Shown here in pieces: positions 4,643-60,319 of a DNA stretch of 64,000 nt. The stretch is from Dipodascopsis uninucleata var. uninucleata. Lineage: Eukaryota; Ascomycota; Lipomycetes; Lipomycetales; Lipomycetaceae. The stretch's first letter is position 1, and every line of letters begins with the position of its first letter. The stretch is from positions 124,001 to 188,000 of the forward strand of contig JAJLTO010000018.1 of assembly GCA_030568195.1 (NCBI GenBank), in the 5' to 3' direction. The notes beneath the pieces were generated by a model, which had not been told where the DNA came from, did not search any database, and was given only the letters and a program-made list of their open reading frames with translations. The translations under genes were made by a program, and so were the position numbers.

Positions 4643-5784
4643 CTATATGGTCAAACGATCTTTAATTTTTGATGTTACCAACTCATAAACCTCCTCCTTA
4701 GATTTCTCACAGGGAATAGTAATGACCTTATCCTTCGACTTGTAATAATCAATTACTGGCATCGAGGTGTCAACAAAGGTCTTAAAGCGCTTCTTAATAC
4801 TCTCGATATTGTCATCAGACCTGCCACTAGTTTCACTGCGCTTAAGAAGTCGCTGTAACATGACTTCCTCTGTACAATCGAAGTATAATGTGAACTCAGA
4901 TACGGCAACATCCTCCTCAAACTTGAGAGCTTGGTCCATTTTACGGGGAAATCCATCAATTAAAAACTTAGACTTGCCATTAGCAACCTCGGAAGCCATA
5001 GCATTCTTTAGAAGGGCAATTGTGATCTCCTGGGGTACAATCTTACCCTCACGAATGTATGTCGAAATTAGTTCACCGTATTCTGAACCCTCACGAGCCT
5101 GTTCGGCACGTAAGAGATCACCTGCTGACAAGTGAACAAAGTTGTAGTCTTTAACGAGATTAGCACATTGAGTTCCCTTACCAACACTATTTTCCGTTAG
5201 TACGTTTCATTGAGCCACGTTAAAATTCTAAATAGGTTCATGTACGCAACAAGACCCACCGCTGGTCGGATCCAGTTCGAATTCACATCTACTTACCCAG
5301 GGCCTCCGAGAACAAATATAACAGAGACTTGATCTCTGGAGAAGGCGGGTGATGAAGCTTGATTAATGGTCATATCGACTTTTGGTCCTTCAACGTCTAA
5401 TTTCATATCACGGCGAGTTTCGCGCGTCTTTTTCATAGAACGTGAGACGATGTAAAATATGAAGCTTGCGCCAAGTACGACAGCAATGAGCTTCTTGAAA
5501 TTTGGAGGCTCCCTAGATGGATCTGATGATGAAGAAGATGAGGAGTTTCCACCTACAATTGGCTGTGTACCTGATAGTCGTGGTAATGCTGATGAAAATG
5601 TGCGTCTGCGAATATCTCTTAATTGAAATCCGCCTCCTGTTCTTAATGTCGCTTCTGCACCCGAAGTCAAGGCTCTTCGAGATTGCGAAACACAATTGCT
5701 TATTCCTCTTCCAGTCAACGCTTTTCGAATTGCAAATCCAGTGCTGTACAACAGAAATAGCCTGTTACAATTGTAGATGCTCAT
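4643..5784 (-). CDS. URA6: UMP kinase Ura6 with mitochondrial/membrane N-terminal extension
   Basis: Two exons, 5784-5297 and 5186-4643, give 343 aa. The intron is GTAAGT...TACTAAC...TAG, and splicing restores the P-loop GGPGVGKGTQ. The kinase half has the lid/NMP-binding signatures HLSAGDLLRAEQ, FLIDGFPRKMDQA and SGRSDDNIESIKKRF, matching yeast Ura6, which phosphorylates UMP (and some dCMP/AMP) for pyrimidine nucleotide synthesis. The first 137 residues are extra compared with yeast: a basic, Ser/Arg-rich presequence-like part with RRRTFSSA near residue 60, then a hydrophobic segment at about 99-114 (LIAVVLGASFIFYIV). An in-frame ATG at 5373 (Met138) starts MTINQASSPAF, which aligns with the normal yeast N-terminus and would give 206 aa. 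Which start is used cannot be decided from sequence. Confidence 0.92.
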
Positions 5785-6363
5785 TTTAAAAAAAAAAAAA
5801 AGGTAGGAAACAGAATGTGTAAGTTGAATAAGCAATGACTTGCTTAATATTTTTCCTTTCCCTTCTTCATCCTCTCTGACCCAAATCTTATATGCAGTTA
5901 AAGAATGTAGGAAGCTGCGGCTGTACTACAACGCTCTACAGATTTAGCTACTTATGCCATAAATTAACTGTAACCATGTATTTGCCTATTTGGGATCTAT
6001 ATCTTCAGGAGCACTGATAACGCTAGCTACATTTCAAAAATAACTGGCGACATAGGGATAGCACTCTAGCATAAGCACAGTTATGCCGCATGGACCGCAT
6101 GTTCAGTGCTCTTGTGCCTCATCGTCACTGAGCCGCAGATGTCAACAATATCAGTAGGCATTTTCAGCCGCACGCAGGTCGCACAAAGATGCAATAGCCT
6201 GATAGAAACGCCGGCTTTTGTTTAACGATATAGACAGAGGCTCAATAATAGACTGGGAGGAGGGCAGTCGACGTTTAAACAAACAGGAAGTAAACAAAAG
6301 CAGTGGTAGGAAATCCTGTATAAAAGAAACTAAAGATATCCTGAAGCTTTCATGTCATTGTAG
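5785..6363. promoter_or_regulatory. Divergent promoter region of URA6 and the F-box-like gene
   Basis: A 579-bp spacer separates the two start codons. A 13-nt A run (5788-5800) lies immediately upstream of the URA6 ATG (on the minus strand a T run). No recognisable operator. Confidence 0.45.
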
Positions 6364-15688: not shown

Positions 15689-18600
15689 AAAAAGATATGG
15701 CGACATGCTCTGCAGAAAGTTCATAGTGTATAGAATAATCTTTTTTAGTTTAATCGTATAAATTCTTTTTGGAAATATATTTTTTACGAGTATTAGAATT
15801 AAAACTTCACTTTTTGCCTCTTTGGATGTACATGTCTGAGAATATCACGGACTACGAGAAGTAAGAGAGAAAAGTGGAAAAAAAGGAGTGCTTTTTAAAT
15901 CAAGCAACATAAGTAGGGAAATATCAATTTCCGAAATTAGAACTTTCTCTCGTCCTACTACAGTTATGAGTATAGTATATATTTGTAGTGCGCTCTACGC
16001 AGGTAAAGATGACGGTGGTGGCAGTATTAAGGCACGTACGCCCGATAAAACCTATGCAGCTAAAACTAGGGCAGAATCAAGAGAGCAGGCTATAGTATAC
16101 TTTTAAAAAACGGTAGGTATTCTGCGTAGTGATTTTTATCGTAGCTACTGACAAGGGAGATCAGTCTTGGACCATAGACTAACAGCCTAAAAAAGTCTGC
16201 CCAGCCATGCGTCTCTATTTGTATTGGACAAACAAGGCACATTTGGATATCGAACTGAAATAAGCTGTCCCTTATGTCTTTTACTACCTTCTTTTTCTTT
16301 ACTTTTGCGAGCCACTTCATTGCTTTTTCATATGACTTCTGCTCTACCGTTCATCATATGCTAACTTACCTACTCTTTCTAGAAATACTCTATTCCACCT
16401 AGGTTCTCGCATCTGCAAGTCTGCCACAGGTAACCTGTTCGTGCGCAAGACATGCCTGCTAACTTTGGCTCACCTCGAAGTCAAAAATACAAACAATAGC
16501 CGAGGTTAGGTCTCTGGCATTTGCGCCGGCAATGTAACAGACGCAAGTCGGTCGGGCGCGGGCACCGAAGCGTCGCAACGTGGAGCTGGGTACAGTGCAG
16601 ACGTTGGTCTTGCATTGCGACTGGTAGATACATGTGGAGATAAGAGGAAGTGAAGCTGGAGATGCATCCAAGTGAGTTAAAACAAGTGTAGAAAGCCATA
16701 CATGCCCAATAAATCACCCCAATTCCCTGTCGGTGACAAGGATTGCGAAACAAGTTTGTCTTCAGCCATAGCCAAACAGAATTTTTAGCCATCAGGCCAC
16801 GAGGAGCACGCGAGAAGCGCGTGGACAACGTGGGACTCCCGCGTGCAAACCTCGTGGGCCGCGTGGAAGAGTAGACGCAAGCACGCGAGAGCGCAATGGC
16901 AGACGAGGCAGAGCAAGACGAAAACCTAGCTCTAATGGAACCTTGGACTGCAGTAGTGCCGAAGCTTTTTTGCAACAAACTGCGTAGCCAGCCGCCTAAG
17001 GTTTGAATACTGAATTCTCTTTCAGCACGCAGACCAGCCAAAATTATCCAGCGCCGGTGTGCAATCATAAAGTCCTCGAGCAGGAAAGTGTTCAGAGGTA
17101 AAGTGGGCTGGTTCAAGAAATAGACAAGGCAGTCCACCGAGGATGGAAAGGAAGGTCTACATGTACAGGGATTGTACAGTGCGGAGCTAATGGGCCAGAT
17201 AAAAAGTAAATAAAAATGAAATAAAAAAGGGCACATCCACACTACTGCACCATAATCATTCTCCTATGCCGCTAATACATCCACCGCCAGAAGATTTGAT
17301 AAACCCGTCCCTAGCAACACCTTCGAATGGTAACGCCTAAGAAATACATTAGTAGTCAGCAGGCTCAGTCGTAATTAGAGTACGCAGCACTGGCTCTCAC
17401 AGCACGTCAAAAATGTAGAATTACCGTAGATACTGCTAGTGGCATATGACGAACTATCGCGCATGGCATACCGCAGATCGCTCAGAGACTGGCCGCTGAT
17501 TCTCCATAAATAGAAGAATATTGCATCAGAGTTTGGTCTCGTCTAGTCGAACCCAAAAAAGCATCCAAGACAGAACGCAGATGCTCGTAAGTAGAGCTGG
17601 CAGGTAAGCCCAAATCGCAGTCTGTATTCAACGGTACCGCGTCTGTAGCTCAGCGTACCTGGGGCCCTTTTACTCGGTATGTATGCTCGGACACTGGCGT
17701 GAAAGGAAAACAGGTATCCCTGCGGGCTGCCACAACTCGCCGCTTCTCCAAACAAGAACTGACAGGGATACTTATTACGGAGTCAGTGGTAAAACAGAAA
17801 ACAAACAAGGCAAGAGAACCTGTAGGTCTGGCAACGCTGAGTGTGCCGAGTAGCGTTCTACGGGAAACTCTAACAGCCGTCTAGAGTGCGGCCGTCTACG
17901 CACTAGAGTTTAGCGTTAATGCACGGTTAATTCCCATTCCAAGTCCAAATAGGCAGGTGCGATGGAGCTAATGTCCAGATATTTCCTAACAGGGTAGCTG
18001 TCAATGGCGCGCTGGCGTGCAGTCAAATTAAACTAAGACATGTCTTTGCGACGTTTCCTCTGCGGTAATTGCTTTTTCGCATCACTCTCGATGCTCCCAT
18101 TGCCTGTATTTCCGTTTTACAATACACTGCGCTCTGGCGCTCGAATGCCCTCTTTCTGCACGTACTGTCTCGTTAATCTACTCCTTTATGCTGCTCCTCG
18201 ACCAGGGAGTCGAATCCCTGTACGGCTTTGTGTGCAAGTCCGCCTCATAGCAAAGGCATTTAGTGATGCCATGCAGCTAGGCATAGGAGAGTCTTTCGTC
18301 TGCTCCTAGCAACAGTCGAGTCTGCTAGCTTATGTTTTGTCTTTCAGATCCATGGCTGAAATTACATGCCACACTCCTGCTTACGAAATCTGCACATACT
18401 GGTGTCTGCGCCCGTCTGAGCTCAACAACTACCTTGCTAGCTCTAGCAGAGCGCAACTGGGGCCGATTCGTACTTCGCGCACACATATACGCTCCTTTTG
18501 CTTATTCGCTCGCTTCTTTCGGGCGACCGAAGGCAGCTCGCTTCGTTTTCCTCAACTAGTTCTGGACGCACGCGGAGCCCGCGACGCTACTCTACGGAAG

Positions 18601-21132
18601 ATACCTTCCAGCTTAGCGAGCAGAGTAACTGTTTCAGCTCCTTCATTTGCCTCTCAGTCCAGCTAGCGAGCTTAAGTGCGCGATGGTCTCGCAGTCTGGC
18701 TCGACACTGCCCTCTGGTAGAAATTTGTGAATACGTATATCTCGGCTCATGCATTAGCAGCAGCTCCATGTTTTCTTCATATCATCCTGCCGCAGGATCC
18801 GAAAACCCAAAGAATAATGCAGCAAATGCCAGTCAACACAAAAAAACACAACCAGCTCCTAATAATTTTTTGGCCTCTCGCTGGCTAAGGGAAAATTTAC
18901 AGAAAATTTTAAATTATAATTTTGGTCTAAACTACCCAAAAGCTATGGGTCCTACACTCGCTAAATCTTTTAGAATGTTTATGGTGCCATTTTTAGATTT
19001 GCACAGAGGAAGTACTTAGAATAATCATACTTTTGGACATCCGTGATGGGTAATATTCAAATCATCGCAGTGCTCTGGTTGGTGATCCTCCGGCAAAAAT
19101 CAGCTCATTAAACAAAATTAAGCAGGACGAAACGATGCGCAGTGATCCAGTCATAACTGTAAAGCAGAAGTCCGAATCGTTTAGTCTAAACCATGGCCGT
19201 ACTCAGCAATATCGCACGCTCACCAACGGCCGCCTCGTCGCCGTGTGAGCCTTTTGTCGAAATGCTTACTGCTAAACGCTTCTATCGCAGTCTACAGACT
19301 CCCAAAGTGATCCGCCGAACACGCAAACACGAACAGGCTGCTAAGTGTCTGTGAAAGTGCGTAGCACAGACAGATGTTCCGCAGTATCTGCCTTTAGACT
19401 TTCATGTGAGGACACGAGATTAAATTCAAAAGAGCTCAATTGCCCATGAACGAGTGCACAGAAGAATAGACAGCGATGGCGCAGGAGAGTTCAGGTCAAA
19501 TGACATATATCTTACGTCTACACTAATTTCTAGTCGATGCGAGCTTTCCTAGCTGTGTCTGGCAGGGTGTAGCGATCCGAATAGAACAACAGAGAACACA
19601 GTGCTGACGACTTTTGACGATGCACGGCCTACCGCCAGTATTCGGAGAGCACATTTTGTGCACGTCACTGACTCTGAACCCTGGATTTCCACAGTCAACG
19701 GCCTACGAGGCATCTAACAAATATTCGAAGCGACAGACTGGTAGCTTACTTGCTAATGGAAGCGATCAGTTACATGATAGATAGTGCATATGACGTAACC
19801 TCGTATATTCATCTACAGCCAACTAACTGCTCCTGCTGTTCCGATCTCAGCTCTCATTTCACTTTTCGGCCTGCCTGTCGCTTATGCTTTGTGATTTCTT
19901 CTCACTTCTCCTATGATTTCATCCCGACTAATCTCCATTTAGTTCATGTTTACCAGCTAGCACAAAATAAACGAAAAGCTCATGTAAACATCTCAATGTT
20001 TTGAGTGCCCATTTTAAGTGAATTTTATCAGTTTTTACTTGATTTGGATGGATGAGGTCTCTGCACTGTCTACTGCTGCATGCAACTGGATCCTTTATCT
20101 CTATAATTCTTATTTTCTGCCAGCTACTCTGTCTGTTCTCATTCAGAATTGCTTTTTAATGGGACCGGTCTATCTCTATTTCCAAATTATTATTTATATT
20201 TTTTGGATTTACGTTTAAGAGCATTTATTTTTTGTGCAAACCTAGTTTAATATGTTTGCTTTTTGTATTATTTTAAAGTTTTCCCTCTGATTGTGGTTTC
20301 GTTCTCTTTACCTGGTCCCAGAAAGTATAATTTTATACTCCGCTTTGTATCTTTTATCGCATGTATTTGATTCTTGTTTCTCTACGGCAGTCCGTCCTTC
20401 CATCCAGTCGTTTTTCCCTCTCTGGATCTTAGCTTTCATAACTCTTTTTTCTTTTCTTTTTCGTTTGCCTCGGACTGCTTACGAACCGGTCTATACTAGC
20501 TAACTAGCTTATTAATTAATCTATTACCAAAAAACACTAGGTCATTGCAGCGTATATTAACATATATTAGTGTATTTAAATTTAGTGCCAGAAAAAAGAA
20601 AGAAATGTGTCATGAGATTCGTAACTGATTGTATCTCGTTCGTATACATGATACTCTTTGTATCATCTACTCTTTGGAAGTTTTTTTGTTAGCTGATTGG
20701 CATCTAATATACTTTATGTTCAATTCATTATTAGTCTTTTCGTGTTTTTTCCTCGTCTTATTCATTGCAGTCGTATCCGATCTCGAGCTTGTGGCAGAGC
20801 TATATAAGAGGCATCTCCTGTCTGTCAAAATGTTGTTGTTCTCTTTATTCTACAGAGAAAAACTTAGACCGCCGAAGATACATATTCATAGACATTCGGT
20901 ATAATTACATCATATAATATTTGCTTAGTATTGCATATATATATATATATTCTCTTTAGTCCAGACAATAATTCTCTGAATAATCTTAGTCCTTACATTG
21001 ATTTTCAAGTATTCGATTCGATCATTTGACATAGTATTCAAATAATTTGTGTTCTATATCAATTACTTTAGAAACTACTAGTATCACCAACTCAGCGTTT
21101 AACTATCTTACTAATATTTTGTATTATTCATA
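15689..21132. other. Gene desert with a GC-richer core
   Basis: No ORF here reads like a protein: the candidates (for example 16481-17242 minus and 18498-19019 plus) are low-complexity translations rich in Ser/Cys/Arg with no domain, and many lack a believable start. From about 16.4 to 19.7 kb the base composition is visibly GC-richer (CG-rich words such as cacgcg and cgcgtg) than both the AT-rich DNA on the right (19.7-21.1 kb, long T runs) and the usual spacers. I found no tRNA, rRNA or known snRNA. A 20-bp AT dinucleotide run lies at 20931-20950. It may be an untranslated transcript, a decayed element or a chromosomal structure; sequence alone does not decide. Confidence 0.55.
16795..16860. 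other. Possible structured RNA: three-way junction inverted repeats
   Basis: Bases 16795-16804 (ggccacgagg) pair with 16850-16860 with one bulged base, closing a stem of 10 pairs. Inside are two further hairpins: 16807-16812 with 16818-16823 (6 pairs, 5-nt loop) and 16829-16834 with 16838-16843 (6 pairs with one G-T, 3-nt loop). The fold is possible on either strand. The stretch is GC-rich, which raises the chance of accidental pairing, and I recognise no known RNA family. Confidence 0.25.
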
Positions 21133-21906
21133 ATGAAGTTCACTACTACTATTGCTATTACTGTCGCTGCTCTTACTGCTGCATCGAATGCTGCTCCAGT
21201 TGCAAGACCTGTTCCTATTGCTGACCCTGAAGCACTCCAATGGAAGGGAGCTCCTATTGTTAAGCGTGATCCTCAGCTTAACTGGGGTGGTTCTCCAATT
21301 ATAAAGCGAGAAGCTGAGGCAGAAGCCGATCCTCAGCTCAACTGGGGTGGTTCTCCAATTATCAAGCGTGAACCTGAGCCTCTTAAATGGGGTGGTTCGC
21401 CTATAGTCAAACGAGAAGCTGAGGCAGTGGCCGATCCACAGCTCAATTGGGGTGGTTCACCGATCATCAAACGAGAAGCTGAGGCAGAAGCCGATCCTCA
21501 GCTCAACTGGGGCGGTTCTCCAATTATCAAGCGTGAACCTGAGCCTCTTAAATGGCGTGGATCACCTATAGTCAAGCGTGCCATTGACTTACTTACTAAG
21601 CGATTTCCATTACAATGGAAGGGCTCTCCAATCGTCAAACGCGATCCTCAGCTTAACTGGGGTGGTTCTCCAATTATAAAGCGAGAAGCTGAGGCAGAGG
21701 CCGACCCCCAGCTCAACTGGGGTGGTTCTCCAATTATCAAGCGAGAAGCTGAGGCAGAGGCCGACCCTCAACTCAACTGGGGTGGTTCTCCCATTATTAA
21801 GCGAGAGGCTGATCCTCAGCTTAAGTGGGGTGGTTCTCCTATTGTTAAGCGGGAAGCCGAAGCCAATCCAGAGGCTCTCCAATGGAAAGGTTCACCAATT
21901 GTTTAA
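21133..21906 (+). CDS. Alpha-factor-like mating pheromone precursor with 13 Kex2-delimited repeats
   Basis: Single exon, 257 aa. Residues 1-20 are a signal peptide (KFTTTIAITVAALTAASNA). From residue 30 to the end there are 13 repeats, 12 of them followed by a Lys-Arg Kex2 site and preceded by XA/XP dipeptides (EAEAEADP, EPEP, EAEANPEA) of the kind trimmed by a Ste13-type dipeptidyl aminopeptidase. Predicted cores: LNWGGSPII (7 copies), LKWGGSPIV (2), LKWRGSPIV (1), LQWKGSPIV (2) and LQWKGAPIV (1). Trp followed by Gly-Ser-Pro recalls the W...GQP core of ascomycete alpha pheromones. Secreted peptides would act on a Ste2-type receptor on cells of the other mating type. Other Kex2-processed repeat proteins (for example RiPP precursors) are the alternative, but no UstY-type gene lies nearby. 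Residues AIDLLTKR between repeats 7 and 8 are a spacer with an extra Kex2 site. Confidence 0.82.
   Translation: MKFTTTIAITVAALTAASNAAPVARPVPIADPEALQWKGAPIVKRDPQLNWGGSPIIKREAEAEADPQLNWGGSPIIKREPEPLKWGGSPIVKREAEAVADPQLNWGGSPIIKREAEAEADPQLNWGGSPIIKREPEPLKWRGSPIVKRAIDLLTKRFPLQWKGSPIVKRDPQLNWGGSPIIKREAEAEADPQLNWGGSPIIKREAEAEADPQLNWGGSPIIKREADPQLKWGGSPIVKREAEANPEALQWKGSPIV
21220..21903 (+). repeat. In-frame tandem repeat array of the pheromone gene
   Basis: Thirteen units of 39-60 nt, each encoding (XA/XP)n-core-Lys-Arg. Neighbouring units are nearly identical at DNA level (for example those around 21310-21370, 21480-21540 and 21690-21790), so copy number has probably changed recently by unequal exchange or gene conversion. 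Read lengths must span the array for it to be assembled correctly. Confidence 0.95.
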
Positions 21907-21967
21907 GCGAGCCTTACGATCAGAATAGGGTCCCTTGGCTTTCGGAATTGTCCCTGTATCGATACGC

Positions 21968-21994
21968 TTGAGCGCCTCATTTAATGAGGCTCAA
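21968..21994. terminator. Hairpin 61 bp downstream of the pheromone stop
   Basis: Bases 21968-21973 plus 21976-21981 pair with 21983-21994: 12 pairs with a 2-nt bulge and a tight turn. It sits just after the stop codon and before A/T-rich DNA. A role in 3'-end formation or mRNA stability is possible; fungal terminators do not need hairpins, so this is a tentative label. Confidence 0.3.
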
Positions 21995-23003
21995 TTAGAA
22001 AATTTACCATGTTTAATTAGGGTTTTGACTTTATTTTTTCCTTTCTTAATTGTTACGTTGTATTGACGTTTAATTCCCGGTTGCTGGAATTGCATCCGGA
22101 ATTAAATCTTAAAACATGTTTGTCACTGATTATGTTATTATCTGGATTTATATTTTTTTTGTTAAGCTGCAAGTTTCATGATTTTGGTATTCTAATTGTA
22201 ATATTTTTGGACCGTTTTGAGAAGTTGTCCCTTTGGAGTTCTACAATTCTGCTTTGAATAAGTTTGAGACTAATGTATGGAAGGCATATTTCGATATTCT
22301 TGTTGCTTGCGAGAATATTGATTTTAAACTAGAAGCTGATTGACACTTGCAATCTGTAAAGTTTCGTGAGAATTTTGATCATGAAATGACAAGCAATGGT
22401 ATAATTTAGTTCTAGTCTCCCTCTTTCTATGATGAAATTTGGTCATGCGAGTATTCTGTTTTGATCTATTAGAGGGATGATCTCTATTATATTTATATTG
22501 TGACGCTTATCCCAAGCAATACCATTTATTGGACAAATCTAGGCATAGTTGGTGCTGGGTTATTTATCATTTGGCTTGAGTATACTTATCTTTGATTATT
22601 ACAGTAGTAGAAACTTCGCTGCATTCTCTTTTTTTGATTTTCTGTCTCTATTTATAGGCTCTACATATCAACCCTGATAGCACTCGTTTATACATGTATT
22701 AGAATGTTGGAATGTGCCTGAAATGTTTTTAAATTACGTCGCTCTTTTATTGATCGCAGTTGGTATATTTAGACAATTTTAAATTTTTAATTTTTTCGTG
22801 TCTTATCTTTTAATCGAATACGTGATCTATTTTCGGTATTTATATTGGTACGTAGAGCCTACATAAAATTCAGCTGTTAATATTTCAGAGGTAGTGTTCA
22901 TAGTGTTTTAGGAGAATTAGCCTATGATCAAGCGAGAGCAAAAATTGCGGTATTATGTATCGAGATTCAGTGCTCGGCTATATATCAAACAAAACCTTTA
23001 GGT

Positions 23004-23036
<33 letters not shown>

Positions 23037-23044
23037 GTATATAT
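23004..23044. repeat. AT / GTAT microsatellite
   Basis: An alternating AT run changes into four GTAT units and back to AT. Likely length-variable; no function implied. Confidence 0.9.
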
Positions 23045-24065
23045 GATCATCATGGAACTTTTTTGTAATGGAGCTAATTTCAAGACTATATACACTGTAG
23101 CACTGTAGCCAGCGGTATGGGTCTATTATCAGTGGCAGGAACTATAACTATCAAATTCATAGGGTTGTGTTGCCTCCCTCAGACAGCAACTTATCAGGTA
23201 GCCAGTCTTAAGATACAACATAACATAGTATTAAGCCACGATCTCACGGCGACTGAGAAATGAAGAAATTCCCTAGTGGAAACCCTTGATTATGTCGCTT
23301 TCCGAGCGTGGCTCTCGTTCGCAGCATTATCCAGTCACTAAATACTTAAATTGGAAAAGCACTATAGCATACCTCCAAATCACAACAGGCTTGTATCTCG
23401 TGGATAGTCTCATATTTGACCAGGTGTGGATGGCTGATACTAGCTTAAGCGTTTTCTCTTTCGCACTTATAATAAGACCTTATTTTCTTCCCACTTCCTT
23501 GGTAGCAAGTGTGGGAGGCCTAAAAGTGCACCGGCTTGTGCCTATCGTGGCTTGCGGCCTATCAGGCTCTGAAATGTTGACAGTAAAATGAACTATTTGG
23601 ACCTACTGCGCTTAAAGGTTTCGAACAGGGCGCCAATTTTATGAGATAATGACATCACAATCATGGGATATATTTGATAAACACATCCATCGATTGAGTC
23701 CACAATGCTCGCCTCTGCTCTTTCGCCAATTTCAATGGTAGCCCCTCATTTCAGATGATCGAGGCTGTTAAAGACGAGGCACCATAATTTCACCACGACC
23801 TTATATAGCGTAAGCGAGTATAGGTAAATTGCCTGCCAGTTTGGCTCGCTCTGATGATTAGCTGATAGATAGACTGAAACGTCCCATATCAGCTATGCTA
23901 GTCTAAATCTTGTAGCTTATTTAGATTCTTGAAGATTTGTGACTTCTATTCCCTAGTCTCTTGTATTTTTACAAACTAGAATTCCATTTCAGATCTGCAA
24001 GCAAACGGTGGAGCCATCAATTATTGTTCAGACTTAAAGAGTGCTTAGTCCTGAACTAGCATTTC

Positions 24066-24086
24066 GCTTCCAAATATTTTGGAAGC
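24066..24086. repeat. Short perfect inverted repeat
   Basis: Arms of 9 bp (gcttccaaa / tttggaagc) around a 3-nt loop, about 180 bp before the larger hairpin. Nothing else marks the site. Confidence 0.6.
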
Positions 24087-24260
24087 ACGTGACTTGGAGA
24101 AAGTAGGAAGTTTTTGTGTCAACCACTAGCAATATCTTTTTGATCAGGGAACAGGCAGAGCCTATCTAGTTCAATGCAGCACTTTAAAATCTGGGGATTC
24201 TTCTACACAATCCACTCTAACTAGGTATTTAAGCTTGACGGTAGTACGAGATTGGCACTC

Positions 24261-24298
24261 CAATTTAGAGGTACCACCATTACAGTACCTCTAAATTG
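24261..24298. repeat. Perfect 14-bp inverted repeat with 10-nt loop
   Basis: Arms caatttagaggtac (24261-24274) and gtacctctaaattg (24285-24298) are exact reverse complements around the loop caccattaca. It lies in gene-free DNA. It could be a fragment of a MITE, a small hairpin transcript or a protein-binding palindrome; no target-site duplication was obvious. Confidence 0.8.
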
Positions 24299-25856
24299 AT
24301 AGTTAAGGAATTCTGAGCCTCTGTCCACCGTACAGAGCGTGAGTCGAGAAGGACTAGATAAAGCAAGAATGTCCCTCTTGCTACGCTTTCAAGTATTACT
24401 TCTCTCGCAATTTCATTAGTAAGAATGCGTTTTCGATGTCTTGTCTTTAGCAATGCGCATGCTTTATTTTTTTTTTTTTCGTTGACGAAGCTGATGCCAA
24501 TGCCAATGCAAGCTAGTCAGCCACGTCCTGTCGCTAGCTCTAGCTTTCAGTTAGTTTCAATTGATCCTACTCAATTTTAAAGTCCTGTTCTCTTCTTATG
24601 CACTATACCAAGTTCTGATATTTACCAACGCATCATTTTTGTGTTCGTGTTATGTAGAACATCGTTGTCATAGTCTTTTGACACTTGATTATATATACAC
24701 CATAATTGTTACAAAGACTCATTTTTCGCCGTTATATAATTATACAGTGTACAATACTCTTGTCGTTTACTTCGCTCATTAGGTTTTCTATTATTATTCA
24801 TAATCTGCGGTCAACTGCGCAGCAATGCGGTCTAGAAGTTAATCGTTTGCTGTTATTCAGACTTGATTTGTGTAGTATTCGGAAATACAAAAGGAAACGC
24901 AAGTTTTGAGACGACTAATCAGGGACCTCTCGAATAAAAGACGAAAGTGCCTATATGTTTAATTTAGAACAGTGTCCGATAAGATTCTCGAGTAATTTAA
25001 CGTAGTCGAAAGGTTGGCTATTCCAGTATCTCAGTTGCAGCTAGATTTACCTATTACTAGCGACATCTGAAAGAGCACTAATGATAAGAGGTGCGGATGT
25101 AGCCTATTTTAGTTTCCATCTCCTCGTATGCCCAATTTACCATACCTTGATTAAATAGGCTGCTAGATCATATGTTTTATTTGCAGCGCGTCTAGTTAAC
25201 TCTTAATTCTCGTACGTTACTACTCGAGAGTAGCCTTTAGATCCCTCAAATACTCTGCGACCATTGCTTTTTCATTATTAGTTCTTAGATCATGTTATAA
25301 ATGATTTATCCCCTAGAAATTTTACCTAGCATCAAATATAGAGAATATGTGTAGTTTACTTAGTCACGATAATTTACTGTGCTTATTGATTCTGATACGA
25401 GCTGTATAATTTTAAAGCGCCAATAGACGGGAGACATGTAGAAAATGACATAAGCCTAAAAAGCAAACAATGTAATAAATATTCAACGAGATGATTAGCA
25501 TTTTATACTTGCATATAACTTTGAACGGCAATACAATAAAAACAAGTGAGCATAATATGCATAGTCTCATCACCAAATAAAATAGTGTAAGGCAAAAAAA
25601 AAGCACGAGGATATTTCAAAATAGCATGCATTATTTTGAATGGTTAAATACATATACTATCTAATACTCCTAAAAGATCGGTATAATATGTATATTGAAA
25701 GATATACTACATATATACTACCTAAATAATCACATATACTTTCCAATTGTAGTTTTAATAAAAAACATCATATAGATCATAAGCGGCTTGAAACTTCTGA
25801 GCTAAATCTAGCTTCCTGCAACCATTATTGTAGTTCAGAAAGCCTTAATCTCTAAC

Positions 25857-35407: not shown

Positions 35408-36907
35408 TTACCAAATTTTTTCGACATAACCTCCGCAGTACTTTACTTCCTGTGGAGGTGCCATTACATCAAGATTCAGTAATGCTATAGTTATAATCTC
35501 ACCAATAGAGAAGTAGCAGTTATCTGAGGTTAGTCGTTCATGTGTTGAGATATCAAGGATAATCGTATTTGTGTACGTCAATATACGAACCATAATCGCA
35601 TAGGTTGTGATTCCTGGTCCAAAGTAAATCTTCAGATGTGCCTTCTCTTCGAGTCTGCCGAAAATATGGATAACATCGTCGTCAATGACTACAGATATAT
35701 AACGAGCCTTCTGTAGCCTTGCATGCTTTGAGAAGCTGACCATTCGCAGACCGCATCTTCCAGTTCCATGGATAGTTTGAATGTGCTTCAGACAGCTAAG
35801 GCTATCCTTATCGGAAGTTACAGTATTAAAGAGAATAATATATCCAGTTTCATTTGATGACAGAGAATCTACGAGCTCTCCAATTACGTTGTAGACTGAC
35901 TGAATTCTAACAAAGATCTCAGTTGTACTTGTATGCTGTGTAGTTTGCAGCGTTTGAATCAGATATCTGTTTCCACTCACAACACTGCCTTGGACGCCAA
36001 CGACACTCACGAGGCCAGCTGACGCGTCCTCATCGATTTCAAGAACATTAGAAATATAAAATAGGTCCCACTGTTCATCTGAACTAATGATATCTGGAGA
36101 GATACCGAATCTGCGCGACTCAAACATCATTGATTCGTTGCTATTCGTTTGCTCAAATTTATATTTTCTTATATTTGAGTCGTACATCTCAAGAAAGAGA
36201 TACAAACTTTTGATAGCTGCTTTATCATCCTCGGTCTTTAAAAAGACGGATAAAACGTTGCTTTCATAAGCATCTATAGAATTCTGCTCTGATTTTATCA
36301 GCGGAAGAGTACAGTTGTCTCCATGAATTTTAAGAATAGATGTAGAAAGCAGATGTTCCTTTAGTTGCCGCAAAACTTGTGAATGATGCTTTCTTTCTAG
36401 GTCCACGAAAAGCACTATTTTATATTTTCTCTGCATCTGAGCAATCGAAATTGCGCATTTATTTGCAGTAGTCAATTCTAGTGAACTAATTCGTATAAGG
36501 ACAACATGTGGTCGAAATAACATCAAAGATGAAATAATTCTTGGCGGTTTCGAATCGTGTTTCCGATTAGCAGATCCAATAAGATGAATTTTGCAACATC
36601 CATAAGTTGTATCCTGCAGACGACGGTCATAGCGAATGATTTCTATCGTGGAAGACTTTGTTCTATGTAGTCTAATTGTATTAAATATCTCCTTTGCGCA
36701 AATCAGCTGAAGAATATGATCTTCTCCTACGTACATAGCAGAGCTGTCTACAATTGCTAATCGTTCTGTGAATAATCCATCGATGGTGGACCCGCAATTA
36801 TCTACTGATCCACAGCCAATCGCAGCCGATCTTTCATTACCAAAGATCAGTACTCTAAGAGTTATCATCGTATCTCCATGGTCAGAGATTATATTATTCT
36901 GTGCCAT
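35408..36907 (-). CDS. Strongly diverged translational-GTPase-like protein (GTPBP1/2 type) without GTP-binding motifs
   Basis: One exon, 499 aa. Read end to end it follows the plan of GTPBP1/GTPBP2: an N-terminal Rossmann-like G domain (LRVLIFGNERSAA near 17-29; CCKIHLIGSANRKH near 105; HVVLIRISSLELT near 134; KYKIVLFVDLERKHHSQVLRQL near 165), a domain 2 beta barrel (LFYISNVLEIDEDASAGLVSVV and GSVVSGNRYLIQ at about 283-320), and a domain 3 barrel ending CGGYVEKIW. Where active family members have GxxxxGKS, DxxG and N/TKxD, this protein has GNERSAAI, HLIGS and FVDLE, so nucleotide binding is probably lost. The frame is open over 1.5 kb, which argues for function. The assignment is by pattern only; another diverged EF-Tu-like family is possible. 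Confidence 0.45.
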   Translation of the reverse strand: MAQNNIISDHGDTMITLRVLIFGNERSAAIGCGSVDNCGSTIDGLFTERLAIVDSSAMYVGEDHILQLICAKEIFNTIRLHRTKSSTIEIIRYDRRLQDTTYGCCKIHLIGSANRKHDSKPPRIISSLMLFRPHVVLIRISSLELTTANKCAISIAQMQRKYKIVLFVDLERKHHSQVLRQLKEHLLSTSILKIHGDNCTLPLIKSEQNSIDAYESNVLSVFLKTEDDKAAIKSLYLFLEMYDSNIRKYKFEQTNSNESMMFESRRFGISPDIISSDEQWDLFYISNVLEIDEDASAGLVSVVGVQGSVVSGNRYLIQTLQTTQHTSTTEIFVRIQSVYNVIGELVDSLSSNETGYIILFNTVTSDKDSLSCLKHIQTIHGTGRCGLRMVSFSKHARLQKARYISVVIDDDVIHIFGRLEEKAHLKIYFGPGITTYAIMVRILTYTNTIILDISTHERLTSDNCYFSIGEIITIALLNLDVMAPPQEVKYCGGYVEKIW

Positions 36908-37522
36908 AATGCTCTATTGACAGTCTGGTATTGCTTCTAGCTCTTACAATACAGCCAAAGACAAATACGACCATTGACAACTCTTGCTTATTGTTCAGGG
37001 CCAGGCTATAAACGCGAGACTTTTATTAACGCAATTTAAATAACAATTCTATTAAACAATTTATATAAGTACAATGATTTCAAAATTTTTGTCACCCAAA
37101 ATTTTTGCAGTTTTTTCGTACCGCTCTCTGTGTCGTAACACGTTTTGCAGTTTGTCGTTCCTATTCCTGTTCGCGGTATTATCACGTGCAAAAATATTCA
37201 TGCTTTGAAAATGCCAATTAAGTTTATTCATGTCTCAAGTCGTCTGACTAAATAGAAGCGGAATTTAACGAAGAGAAGAAGAATTCAACATTAATACCAA
37301 TATTCTATACTGTACAGTTAAAGAGTGGAATAAAAATTATCAAGTGAGTTTAAAAAGTAAATTGTGCTGGCCAGCATAATGAACAGAGTTGCAAAAAGGC
37401 TGTGCCTATCCAAAGAAAATAAAAAATATGAGCAAGCTTGTCTAAGTGACTAAATATCAAGATTAGACAATGTATATCTTACTGAAGCGGTATGACGTAA
37501 TGCCTGATGCGATACCTCAATT
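36908..37522. other. Intergenic
   Basis: 615 bp between two minus-strand genes. AT-rich; contains the promoter of the GTPBP-like gene. No repeat or RNA gene seen. Confidence 0.45.
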
Positions 37523-57428: not shown

Positions 57429-59801
57429 TTAGCACCAAATAAACCATTTAAAAACGGAATAAACTGAAACTACGATCCATCGGACAAGTCTAAAAACAGT
57501 AACTACTCCCCAAACGCCCCATAGCATGCACGTAACAAACTTCTCCAGCATAGCATAGCCAACACGCTCCAGTGCACTCTTCATGCGCTCCTTTCGACTA
57601 AACAGTGCGCCGCGTTTCTCAAGAGCTTCCAAACTCTCACTAATTTTACGTGCTTGAAGACTAAGAGTTGCGCTCACATCAGCAGCTAATTGATCTGCTG
57701 TTGAGATAGCAAAGTCAAATCTGTTTCCAATATCTGTCGATAACGTAGATGAGATATTATCGGCTCTTGACGATAACATAGCTAGTGTTTTATGACGGGT
57801 AGCAATAGTGGAATTGTTAATCTCATCTGCAACTACTAAAAAAGAATCGCCCAACGCCTTGAAACAATCGTTTTCTATATCACTCTCAGCAGGACAATTT
57901 TCACTTATAAGCCGCCTGTAGCGTTGAGTGTAAGAGTTACTAAGCATGTTGGCACGTACGCCACAAACGAGATAAGTGGTCTCGAGAGATTTCAGCTCAG
58001 ACATCAATTCATTTATATACTTGTTCGACGAGCAAACAGGAGGTATTATTTTATCGCTTTCCTGTGATATACTTTGAGCTGGTAGCTGCGGTTTCAATTT
58101 CGCTGACTTAGCGGACTCAGATGAGAGCTCCGAATAGCTTGAGGTACGACTTAAATAACTATTATCGCTTTGCTTGCGAGATTCATTCGTGTCTTTACCT
58201 GGGGACGGACCAGTAGCGGCAATAATTGGCACATCCAGCAAAGCTGAGTGGTTACTTGCAATATGAGTTAAATTCTGTTCGTCAGAAGGGAGAGGTGACA
58301 GGCGTCTGGACCTTGCCGGTGATATATTAGACGATACTGAGCTAGTATCTGTGATTACGGTCGGATTTCCCACGGTAAGCAAACGATCATCTTGAGCATC
58401 AACGTCCAGAGAGCCTACCTGTCTGCCAGAATGATGAACATGAATATCTGGATCAGACAGAGAAGAAGTACTATCAGAATCAGAGGCATCCTTAGGATTA
58501 GATAAATCAATCGTAATCGGTCGATCGTTAGAAATTAAATCATCATCATCTTTTTCATTCTGTTGTCCTACAAAGCGCTTTTTACGGCGAGGACGAGAGA
58601 AACGGTGTCTGTGGCCTCCAGAACTAGTTATAATTGATGTTTCAAATTCATTACCTATATCTTTCAAGTCCTTACTTTGCCCTTTCTTTGACCTGTAGCT
58701 ATGAAAGCGATCTCGGAGATGATGCTTTCGTCTTGAAGTTTGACTCAGAGAATCTTCTTCTTGCCCTTCTTCATCGTCATCCTCTGCAGAGCTCTCAAAC
58801 TCGTCGCTGTCATATTGCTCGTTCATACCACTTGTTCGAATACGAACATTTCGAAGTTCAGGATACAGAGGGTTACGATTGCGATCTACCATGAGTGGGC
58901 GATTCCGTTCTCGCCAAGCCCAATCGGCATAGAGTTCATTTATATCAATTTCCCACGCAATCCTTGCATTCGGAGACTGTTTACAGACAGTTGATGCTGG
59001 AATTATCATTGAAAGCTCCGGAATTTCAAGCTTGTGGTTGAGCTTGAGTCTGACTTCACGATTTCGCAGACTTTGTAAAGGATTATATACTCCATCCACG
59101 CCTGGATGGTAGGCTAAAGAAGTCGAACCGGAGTGAGGAACTCTTTGACACTGTATAATAAAAGCTGCATGGAGATCAAACCAGGCCTTTGTCCGGATAA
59201 TTCGTCGACGAGTTAGGGGAGAGATCACGTAGCGCTTGCCATCGATGACGAGTATTTCCTTGCCGTGATTCGAAATAGAACCTTTACTTTTTGCAATTAT
59301 TTGTGTATCATTATTCCTTGAATCTTTTAAGTGCATGACCATATTCGCAACTCTAGCAACTTCAGAGTCACTAACCGGTATGGATAATTTCTTACTTTGA
59401 ACGCCACTACTTCTTCGACTCTCAGATTGTGTCGCAGAGGATGATGTTGTCGCAGGTGAATTCTCCTCGCTAGGTAAAATATCATCCGAAATTAATTTTC
59501 CCGGAAATTCTTGATAATCATTATGGTTTCCAACAGTATCGCCTAGTGAAACGTTTGTGGTCTGCTTATATCTAGGACTGTTCACAAAAAAGGCTGATGA
59601 CTTATGTGCATCACTATTATGCCTTTGACGTGGTGAGAACAGCCCACTTGTCCTAAGACCGTTTCTGCTACCCTGTCTATTTATAGACTTATCAATGCCG
59701 TCTAAAGAGTCTACCGATCGCTCACGTTCAGAGGCATCATCATTGCTATGCTCGAAATTGGCGCTATCGCGAATGCTAGAGGCCGTTGATATTGGTGCCA
59801 T
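57429..59801 (-). CDS. Large fungal membrane protein of unknown function
   Basis: One exon, 790 aa. The first 160 and the middle (about 330-600) are Ser/Asp-rich and probably disordered, with many phosphosite-like RRSS/SxR words. A folded, conserved-looking core lies at about 190-320: RRIIRTKAWFDLHAAFIIQCQ, YHPGVDGVYNPLQSLRNREVR, KLEIPELSMIIPAST, AWEIDINELYADWAWRER. About 600-730 is helical (KYINELMSELKSLETTYLV, then several long helices), and the extreme C-terminus holds hydrophobic segments (CMLWGVWGVVTVFRLVRWIVV, then SVYSVFKWFIWC), typical of a tail-anchored ER or vesicle protein. I recognise the core as something seen in fungal hypothetical proteins but cannot name it. Confidence 0.8.
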   Translation of the reverse strand: MAPISTASSIRDSANFEHSNDDASERERSVDSLDGIDKSINRQGSRNGLRTSGLFSPRQRHNSDAHKSSAFFVNSPRYKQTTNVSLGDTVGNHNDYQEFPGKLISDDILPSEENSPATTSSSATQSESRRSSGVQSKKLSIPVSDSEVARVANMVMHLKDSRNNDTQIIAKSKGSISNHGKEILVIDGKRYVISPLTRRRIIRTKAWFDLHAAFIIQCQRVPHSGSTSLAYHPGVDGVYNPLQSLRNREVRLKLNHKLEIPELSMIIPASTVCKQSPNARIAWEIDINELYADWAWRERNRPLMVDRNRNPLYPELRNVRIRTSGMNEQYDSDEFESSAEDDDEEGQEEDSLSQTSRRKHHLRDRFHSYRSKKGQSKDLKDIGNEFETSIITSSGGHRHRFSRPRRKKRFVGQQNEKDDDDLISNDRPITIDLSNPKDASDSDSTSSLSDPDIHVHHSGRQVGSLDVDAQDDRLLTVGNPTVITDTSSVSSNISPARSRRLSPLPSDEQNLTHIASNHSALLDVPIIAATGPSPGKDTNESRKQSDNSYLSRTSSYSELSSESAKSAKLKPQLPAQSISQESDKIIPPVCSSNKYINELMSELKSLETTYLVCGVRANMLSNSYTQRYRRLISENCPAESDIENDCFKALGDSFLVVADEINNSTIATRHKTLAMLSSRADNISSTLSTDIGNRFDFAISTADQLAADVSATLSLQARKISESLEALEKRGALFSRKERMKSALERVGYAMLEKFVTCMLWGVWGVVTVFRLVRWIVVSVYSVFKWFIWC

Positions 59802-60319
59802 TTGACTCTACTTCTGGAGCAACTAAAGCACATAAACCAAGCCGCTTGCTCACTCTGTCAAAGTGATACAAGTAGATCGCTCTATTATAATTATGCTTAA
59901 AGATCCTGATGCTGGTACTTCGTAAACTATGTAAAACTATTATATTTATCATAAGTGCATCTGCCCAGGGTCTTCTATAATGATGAATTGGAAAATAGGT
60001 CTTTTATTATGGTCACTGAGGGGTTTGTAGCAACTGGGAGTCAAAAACTTTCCGATACAGCTCACCGTTTAGCTGCAGACACAATGGGTTCAGAAATGTA
60101 AACAAGCAGTAGTAATTACATGAGATTTTGCATTTCATTCTCTAATAAAACACAAAAGGAAAACTCATAGATTGATATGGCATATAAAGGTCTAAGCTAT
60201 ATATTAAGAAGCTTTCTAAGGATTCTGTTCCTAAGACTTGGAACTAGACAGGCAAATAGTACATTTGTAATTGGACAATTACGTTCATACATAACTAAAT
60301 TTAAAGGGCCAACGATGCT
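59802..60319. other. Intergenic
   Basis: 518 bp: promoter of the 790-aa gene and 3' end of the DCAF7 gene. No other feature. Confidence 0.45.

What the first reader, a model, noticed from the sequence alone, without database searches (positions are those of the whole stretch)
21133..21906. Alpha-factor-like pheromone precursor of a divergent type, 13 copies
The gene has every part of an alpha-factor precursor (signal peptide, Ste13-type XA/XP leaders, Kex2 Lys-Arg sites, repeated cores), but the core (Trp-x-Gly-Ser-Pro-Ile-Val/Ile, 9-10 aa, no cysteines) differs from the yeast and filamentous forms I know (W...GQP). Thirteen copies in one precursor is high.
Basis: partly seen in the sequence, partly recalled or inferred. 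Interest (0 to 1): 0.75.

Follow-up and report, generated by a model that had tools for sequence, protein, structure and literature searches.

The report
Fungal alpha-type mating pheromone precursor gene
A fungal gene encodes a secreted protein that is probably cut into thirteen small peptides resembling an ascomycete mating pheromone; it is a good example of a well-known kind of gene, with a peptide sequence that the searched papers did not show.

Summary
ORF 21133-21906 (+) encodes 257 aa: a signal-like N terminus, then 13 cores W-[G/K/R]-G-[S/A]-P-I-[I/V] with Kex2-type Lys-Arg sites and leaders made only of X-Ala/X-Pro dipeptides (40 in all; the stretch before the first core is seven of them in register). 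Predicted products: QLNWGGSPII (7), QLKWGGSPIV (1) and five 9-mers (LQWKGSPIV twice, LQWKGAPIV, LKWGGSPIV, LKWRGSPIV). Between copies, change per nonsynonymous site is a quarter of that per synonymous site. The gene stands alone between 15.7 and 25.9 kb, and no RiPP tailoring gene was found. Best reading: an alpha-factor-type pheromone precursor, probably of an early-diverging budding yeast with standard CTG=Leu code. 'Divergent type' is overstated: LQWKGSPIV aligns ungapped with Fusarium WCTWKGQPCW (W-K-G-x-P), although that match is not significant after correction. Thirteen copies is within the printed range (1-13 in Ceratocystidaceae, 2-18 in Leotiomycetes). The genome is not held, so receptor, proteases, mating-type expression and fungal relatives could not be tested; a non-mating Kex2-processed signal peptide remains the main rival. 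A new member of a known kind.

The parts
21133..21906 (+). Alpha-factor-type precursor gene, one uninterrupted ORF, 257 aa
21133..21192 (+). Signal peptide MKFTTTIAITVAALTAASNA, predicted cut A20|A21
   Evidence: Hydropathy peak 2.33 in the 9-residue windows starting at residues 6 and 7; Ser -3 / Ala -1 rule recalled; cut inferred, because it puts the next seven dipeptides in register; SignalP not available
21193..21234 (+). First leader AP-VA-RP-VP-IA-DP-EA, seven X-A/X-P dipeptides, no other pro-region
21235..21261 (+). Core 1 LQWKGAPIV
21274..21303 (+). Core 2 QLNWGGSPII
21334..21363 (+). Core 3 QLNWGGSPII
21382..21408 (+). Core 4 LKWGGSPIV
21439..21468 (+). Core 5 QLNWGGSPII
21499..21528 (+). 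Core 6 QLNWGGSPII
21547..21573 (+). Core 7 LKWRGSPIV
21580..21603 (+). Odd segment AIDLLTKR, the only Kex2-delimited stretch without a core
21610..21636 (+). Core 8 LQWKGSPIV
21649..21678 (+). Core 9 QLNWGGSPII
21709..21738 (+). Core 10 QLNWGGSPII
21769..21798 (+). Core 11 QLNWGGSPII
21817..21846 (+). Core 12 QLKWGGSPIV
21877..21903 (+). Core 13 LQWKGSPIV, ends directly at the stop codon 21904-21906

Best explanation
It is the precursor of an alpha-factor-type peptide pheromone of an ascomycete fungus. The protein enters the secretory pathway by its signal peptide, which is cut after Ala20. A Kex2-type protease cuts after each Lys-Arg, a Kex1-type carboxypeptidase removes the Lys-Arg, and a Ste13-type dipeptidyl aminopeptidase strips the X-Ala/X-Pro leaders, stopping at Leu or Gln-Leu. 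Up to thirteen linear 9-10-mers are released, (Q)L-[N/K/Q]-W-[G/K/R]-G-[S/A]-P-I-[I/V]. They would bend at the x-G-S-P turn and act on a Ste2-type receptor of the partner (or of the same cell, if homothallic) to start mating or chemotropism. Shown here: the ORF, signal-like N terminus, sites, leaders, cores, constraint on the cores, isolated locus. Inferred: processing, turn, receptor, mating role, and the host being an ascomycete.
For: All architectural parts are present and in register. In a printed survey the Ste13 signature is 'generally only dedicated' to alpha pheromones in Ascomycota (PMC6339444) and absent from Rep1, the cyclic toxic peptides and epichloecyclins. pN/pS among core copies is 0.25, and 19 of 26 minimum changes fall at third positions. 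LQWKGSPIV aligns ungapped to Fusarium WCTWKGQPCW (W, K, G, P identical; shuffle p 0.0077 uncorrected); that K position is Arg in F. oxysporum and G, K or R here. The G-x-P-[I/V] string also occurs in the printed Pleosporales motif PYG[L/M]P[I/V]G. Fungal gene content; CTG at conserved Leu sites. No tailoring enzyme among 27 scanned ORFs, no other gene-like ORF between 15.7 and 25.9 kb.
Against: No Pfam alpha-factor model matched. Of 28 comparisons with printed peptides (14 peptides, two cores) two reach p below 0.05 uncorrected (Fusarium 0.0077; Sclerotiniaceae 0.047, in an out-of-register alignment) and neither survives correction. QLNWGGSPII, the commonest core, reaches 0.051 against Fusarium; S. 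cerevisiae alpha-factor is at chance (0.57-0.66). The usual GQ or PG turn dipeptide is missing (GS, once GA). In 2 kb upstream there is no CArG box, strict Q site, CTATTG or PRE; the loose matches (Mcm1-type 2, being both strands of one site; CAATGNC 1; ATTGTY 1) are near or below shuffled means of 1.2, 0.75 and 3.5. Basidiomycetes have the same precursor architecture without a known mating role, and I could not exclude a basidiomycete by sequence comparison. Receptor and expression untested.
Confidence: 0.8

Rival explanations
1. A Kex2/Ste13-processed repeat protein (KEP) whose linear peptides are a non-mating signal or interaction peptide (development, density sensing, interaction with other organisms), not a Ste2 ligand.
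For: KEPs with Ste13 signatures and no known mating role exist in basidiomycetes and are processed to peptides (PMC6339444; PMC9769878). No receptor or mating link could be shown here. No basidiomycete chain is known to me among the PDB matches used to place the host, so those comparisons do not exclude one.
Against: In Ascomycota the survey finds this signature generally dedicated to alpha pheromones. The cores keep a W-x-G-x-P frame as in Fusarium. The four genes compared are nearest to chains that I recall as ascomycete, and 8 of the 18 Pfam-matched ORFs run over 500 codons uninterrupted, which speaks against most intron-rich basidiomycetes (recalled).
Confidence: 0.15
2. A RiPP precursor of the dikaritin or epichloecyclin kind, whose cores are cyclised by UstYa-type enzymes.
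For: Same general layout: signal peptide, repeated cores, Kex2 sites.
Against: No Tyr or Cys anywhere in the 257 aa (the need for Tyr in dikaritins is recalled). Long Ste13 leaders, reported absent from cyclic-peptide toxin and epichloecyclin precursors. No UstYa/DUF3328, tyrosinase or other tailoring family among the Pfam names listed for 27 of 34 long ORFs (one table shows 25 of 27 families), and no other gene-like ORF between 15.7 and 25.9 kb. Small, intron-rich genes elsewhere in the window could have been missed.
Confidence: 0.03
3. A structural or antimicrobial repeat protein, e.g. Rep1-like cell-surface peptides or an apidaecin-like Pro-rich peptide.
For: The best of four Pfam matches, all below cut-off, is Apidaecin (E 0.0031, 18 bits against a cut-off of 23.1).
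Against: Below cut-off; its best stretch (aa 58-68) is on a spacer, not a core. Rep1 lacks Ste13 sites and gives longer peptides (recalled).
Confidence: 0.02

Closest known systems
Fusarium alpha pheromone (WCTWKGQPCW, F. graminearum; WCTWRGQPCW, F. oxysporum)
   Same: 9-10 aa linear peptide; W-[K/R]-G-x-P in the same register; beta-turn centred on the G-Q pair in F. oxysporum, matching G-S here
   Different: Here Ser/Ala replaces Gln in the turn, Ile-Ile or Ile-Val replaces Cys-Trp at the C terminus, and the N-terminal Trp-Cys is absent
Pleosporales alpha pheromones, motif PYG[L/M]P[I/V]G (PMC6339444)
   Same: No Cys in the motif; G-x-P-[I/V]
   Different: Tyr before Gly, ends in Gly; full peptides not seen, so not in the panel
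S. cerevisiae alpha-factor (WHWLQLKPGQPMY) and its precursor
   Same: Signal peptide, Lys-Arg sites, X-Ala leaders and last copy ending at the stop (precursor details recalled); no cysteines
   Different: No long glycosylated pro-region (recalled for yeast); 13 rather than 4 copies; core aligns at chance level
Huntiella alpha-factor (NSNGGLPGELL, DAWGGLPGELF)
   Same: Cysteine-free core with Gly-Gly; 6-12 copies
   Different: C terminus and turn differ; RR processing sites
Basidiomycete KEPs with Ste13 signature (e.g. Coprinopsis QYKAPSW, Pleurotus MSGVAADW)
   Same: Same precursor layout and processing
   Different: Unrelated cores ending in Trp; no known mating role

Membership tests
Ascomycete alpha-factor-type pheromone precursor | N-terminal signal peptide | tested here: met
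   Hydropathy and cleavage-site shape only; no SignalP available
Ascomycete alpha-factor-type pheromone precursor | Repeats of a conserved 9-14 aa core | tested here: met
   13 cores of 9 or 10 aa; definition from PMC10569646
Ascomycete alpha-factor-type pheromone precursor | Kex2 dibasic site after the cores | tested here: met
   12 of 13 cores followed by KR; the 13th ends at the stop codon
Ascomycete alpha-factor-type pheromone precursor | Ste13 X-A/X-P leaders before the cores | tested here: met
   13 of 13 cores, 40 dipeptides; 1 of 14 segments, AIDLLT, has neither leader nor core
Ascomycete alpha-factor-type pheromone precursor | Central turn, usually GQ or PG | tested here: inconclusive
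   GS (12 of 13) or GA (1 of 13) instead; a turn is likely but was not computed
Ascomycete alpha-factor-type pheromone precursor | Match to curated alpha-factor sequence families (not a defining trait, given the diversity of cores) | tested here: not met
   Four Pfam families listed up to E 10, all below cut-off and none an alpha-factor model; that Pfam holds such models is recalled
Ascomycete alpha-factor-type pheromone precursor | Ligand of a Ste2 receptor | not testable with these tools
   Genome not held; no receptor named among the Pfam matches of 27 of 34 long ORFs
Ascomycete alpha-factor-type pheromone precursor | Mating-type-dependent expression | not testable with these tools
   No expression data; promoter motif scan uninformative
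Ascomycete alpha-factor-type pheromone precursor | Host is an ascomycete | tested here: inconclusive
   Fungal gene content. eIF3b: 734 bits to 4nox (Chaetomium, recalled), next 512 (mammal-type, recalled), yeast-type 478. Enolase: 645 bits to 7vrd/7v67, 644 to yeast Eno1, 615 to 7rhv. GH47 and RPT4 nearer to yeast than to human chains. Organisms recalled; no basidiomycete chain identified among them
Dikaritin RiPP precursor | Tyr-containing core and UstYa-type genes beside it (definition recalled) | tested here: not met
   No Tyr; no such Pfam name for 27 of 34 long ORFs; no other gene-like ORF between 15.7 and 25.9 kb

The most novel reading that the evidence does not exclude
The precursor delivers two distinct ligands rather than noisy copies of one. 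Asn before the Trp always goes with C-terminal Ile-Ile (7 of 7) and Lys or Gln before it always with Ile-Val (6 of 6). The two kinds, 10-mers starting with Gln (which can form pyroglutamate and so resist trimming) and 9-mers starting with Leu (with one intermediate, QLKWGGSPIV), could differ in stability or receptor response, in a lineage whose alpha pheromone uses a G-S-P turn that I did not see in the printed cores I read.
Probability: 0.12. Interest if true: 0.5.

Novelty: new member of a known kind. Interest (0 to 1): 0.3.

Why it matters
A 2021 paper states that the pheromone-receptor interactions of Lipomyces starkeyi, an early-diverging yeast, have not been elucidated (PMC9292350, passages). 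If the host is of that group, which I infer but could not test, this gene gives directly synthesizable peptides for receptor de-orphanisation and strain crossing, and a W-x-G-x-P core that might help to link Fusarium-type and yeast-type pheromones. The find does not change how such precursors are understood.

Tried and rejected
Relatives in the held collections: scans with the precursor gave 5 pattern matches in viral contigs and 12 in bacterial and archaeal genomes, none confirmed by tblastn. This says nothing about fungal relatives.

Own genome: not held, so Ste2, Kex2, Ste13 and MAT genes could not be sought.

PDB sequence relatives of the precursor: nothing meaningful, best E 0.26. Rfam at gathering scores: none. 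tRNA: none.

Literature: 'GGSPI' is in 19 papers, none about a fungal pheromone by its title (listing only). 'alpha-factor' + 'pheromone precursor' + 'Lipomyces': 0 papers. 'Lipomyces' + 'pheromone': 19 papers, of which passages of PMC9292350, PMC7912804 and PMC6692504 were read. Other searches. That I found this peptide nowhere rests on these searches of an open-licence library only; larger pheromone surveys that I recall in subscription journals were not read, and supplements were not searched.

Promoter elements: uninformative.

Shuffle test of the leaders (2e-17): partly circular, since leaders were defined by the dipeptide rule; I use only the 13-of-13 register.

Codon scan: six of its 20 training genes were entered out of frame. 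It is replaced (18 training genes, all checked open); the conclusion became stronger. One search's numbers are not used.

A plasmid-collection search with the enolase gene (15 bacterial records, 5 listed) was of no use.

Full report
What is there. The ORF 21133-21906 on the + strand translates to 257 aa with a single terminal stop. It holds 13 matches to W.G[SA]PI[VI] and 13 Lys-Arg pairs. All 13 matches to W[GKR]G[SAQ]P in the six frames of the window are inside it. Among 211 ATG-to-stop ORFs examined it has the most KR pairs, 13 against 6 for the next.

Anatomy. Residues 1-20 look like a signal peptide by hydropathy. If it is cut after Ala20, which fits the -3/-1 rule as I recall it, what follows is AP-VA-RP-VP-IA-DP-EA and then LQWKGAPIV. 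The stretch before the first core is thus made only of Ste13-type dipeptides and there is no other pro-region. After the Lys-Arg sites the leaders are DP, EAEAEADP, EPEP, EAEAVADP, FP, EADP or EAEANPEA. Stripping X-A/X-P pairs removes 40 dipeptides and leaves a core starting with Leu or Gln-Leu in 13 of 13 cases. One of 14 segments, AIDLLT (aa 150-155), has neither leader nor core. The shuffle probability (2e-17) is partly circular and I do not lean on it.

Products. QLNWGGSPII 7, QLKWGGSPIV 1, LQWKGSPIV 2, LQWKGAPIV 1, LKWGGSPIV 1, LKWRGSPIV 1. Residues co-vary: Asn before Trp with C-terminal Ile (7 of 7), Lys or Gln with Val (6 of 6). Copies are related by duplication (TRF periods include 60 and 165 bases), so these are not independent events.

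Constraint. The 13 core DNAs (27 nt) have 11 distinct sequences but 5 distinct 9-residue strings. Summed over pairs, pS is 0.563 and pN 0.143, ratio 0.25. Minimum changes by codon position are 6, 1 and 19; against one third this gives p 7e-5, a rough test because copies share history. The peptide, rather than the DNA repeat, seems to be kept.

Context. The window is fungal: eIF3m, eIF3b, eIF3j, an RPT4-type proteasome ATPase, enolase, adenylate kinase, a GH47 mannosidase, a Zn2Cys6 transcription factor, a tannase, a cytochrome b5-acyl-CoA dehydrogenase fusion and others. Of 34 stop-to-stop ORFs of at least 150 aa, 27 were scanned with Pfam and 18 matched at E 0.001; the precursor was scanned apart and 6 were left out because they overlap or adjoin others. 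A codon-usage scan of 657 ORFs, trained on 18 other genes, gives the precursor 84.1 and no other ORF between the M20 peptidase gene (ends 15688) and the 3' end of eIF3b (25857) more than 14.0 (22221-22340). One search, an earlier run, had six training genes out of frame and is not used. CTG codons sit at conserved Leu sites of RPT4, such as [13 protein letters not shown] and [10 protein letters not shown] (conservation recalled), so this is not a CUG-Ser or CUG-Ala yeast.

Host. eIF3b is nearest to 4nox (734 bits; Chaetomium, recalled), ahead of mammal-type (512) and yeast-type (478) chains. Enolase is nearest to 7vrd/7v67 (645) and yeast Eno1 (644), ahead of 7rhv (615; Aspergillus, recalled). 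GH47 (451 against 410 bits) and RPT4 (687 against 643) are nearer to yeast than to human chains (organisms recalled). Eight of the 18 Pfam-matched ORFs run over 500 codons uninterrupted, so introns are few. I infer an early-diverging budding yeast, perhaps of the Lipomyces group. This rests on few comparisons, none with a basidiomycete that I can name, and no fungal genome was available.

What it works like. The printed description of an alpha-factor precursor is a signal peptide, repeats of 9-14 aa, X-A/X-P before and KR/RR/KK after (PMC10569646, passages). All are met. In the KEP survey the Ste13 signature is generally dedicated to alpha pheromones in Ascomycota (PMC6339444, section 8), is lacking in Rep1, toxic cyclic peptides and epichloecyclins (first part of section 12), and also occurs in basidiomycete KEPs of unknown function (section 9; PMC9769878, passages). 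In PMC9769878 some N-terminal Gln peptides were found as pyroglutamate, which bears on QLNWGGSPII.

Comparison of cores. Two of the six products were compared, without gaps, with 14 peptides copied from the papers read (28 comparisons). The best is LQWKGSPIV against Fusarium WCTWKGQPCW (PMC7329813, passages): W, K, G and P identical, shuffle p 0.0077, not significant after correction. LQWKGSPIV also reaches 0.047 and QLNWGGSPII 0.099 with the Sclerotiniaceae peptide, out of register. QLNWGGSPII gives 0.051 with Fusarium. S. cerevisiae alpha-factor is at chance (0.57 and 0.66). The F. oxysporum form has Arg at the K position (PMC7289986, passages), and here that position is G, K or R. The Pleosporales motif PYG[L/M]P[I/V]G shares G-x-P-[I/V]; it was not in the panel, as I saw only the motif. 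In F. oxysporum a beta-turn at Gly-Gln is needed for receptor responses; in S. cerevisiae a Pro-Gly bend orients the activating N terminus and the binding C terminus (PMC7570734, passages). G-S-P here would be the counterpart (inference).

What is ordinary. Cysteine-free alpha pheromones (Huntiella, PMC10182648, passages), 13 copies (1-13 in Ceratocystidaceae, PMC13037118, passages; 2-18 in Leotiomycetes) and lineage-specific cores are in print. This core I did not find in print (listings and passages only).

What is missing. The receptor, the proteases, the mating-type genes and expression could not be examined. Promoter motifs were uninformative. These are the steps from 'looks and should be processed like an alpha pheromone' to 'is one'.

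Noticed in passing
15689-25856: About 10 kb with no strong coding signal apart from the precursor (next best ORF 14.0 against 84.1), in a window otherwise full of genes. Unexplained: long regulatory DNA, or unrecognised RNA genes (Rfam found none at gathering scores).
   Followed up: partly
22221-22340: A 40-codon ORF with the second best coding score near the precursor (14.0); could be an exon or chance.
   Followed up: no
21904-21912: The precursor's TAA stop overlaps an out-of-frame AAG-CGA (Lys-Arg codons) directly after the last core (read), as if a further Kex2 site once followed in frame; or chance.
   Followed up: no
21580-21603: AIDLLTKR: the one Kex2-delimited stretch without a core.
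   Followed up: no
21304-21336: Sub-threshold Pfam match to Apidaecin, best at aa 58-68 on the dipeptide spacer; apidaecin precursors use similar EAEP-type spacers (recalled), perhaps a convergence of processing by dipeptidyl peptidases.
   Followed up: no
5293-5925 and 4643-5206, - strand: The adenylate kinase gene appears split by a short intron (a 110-nt GTAAGT...TACTAAC...TAG match), with a long N-terminal extension that by eye looks mitochondrial.
   Followed up: partly
35408-36913 and 57429-59807, - strand: Two long ORFs (501 and 792 aa) with coding-like codon usage (43.7 and 92.3) and no Pfam match.
   Followed up: no
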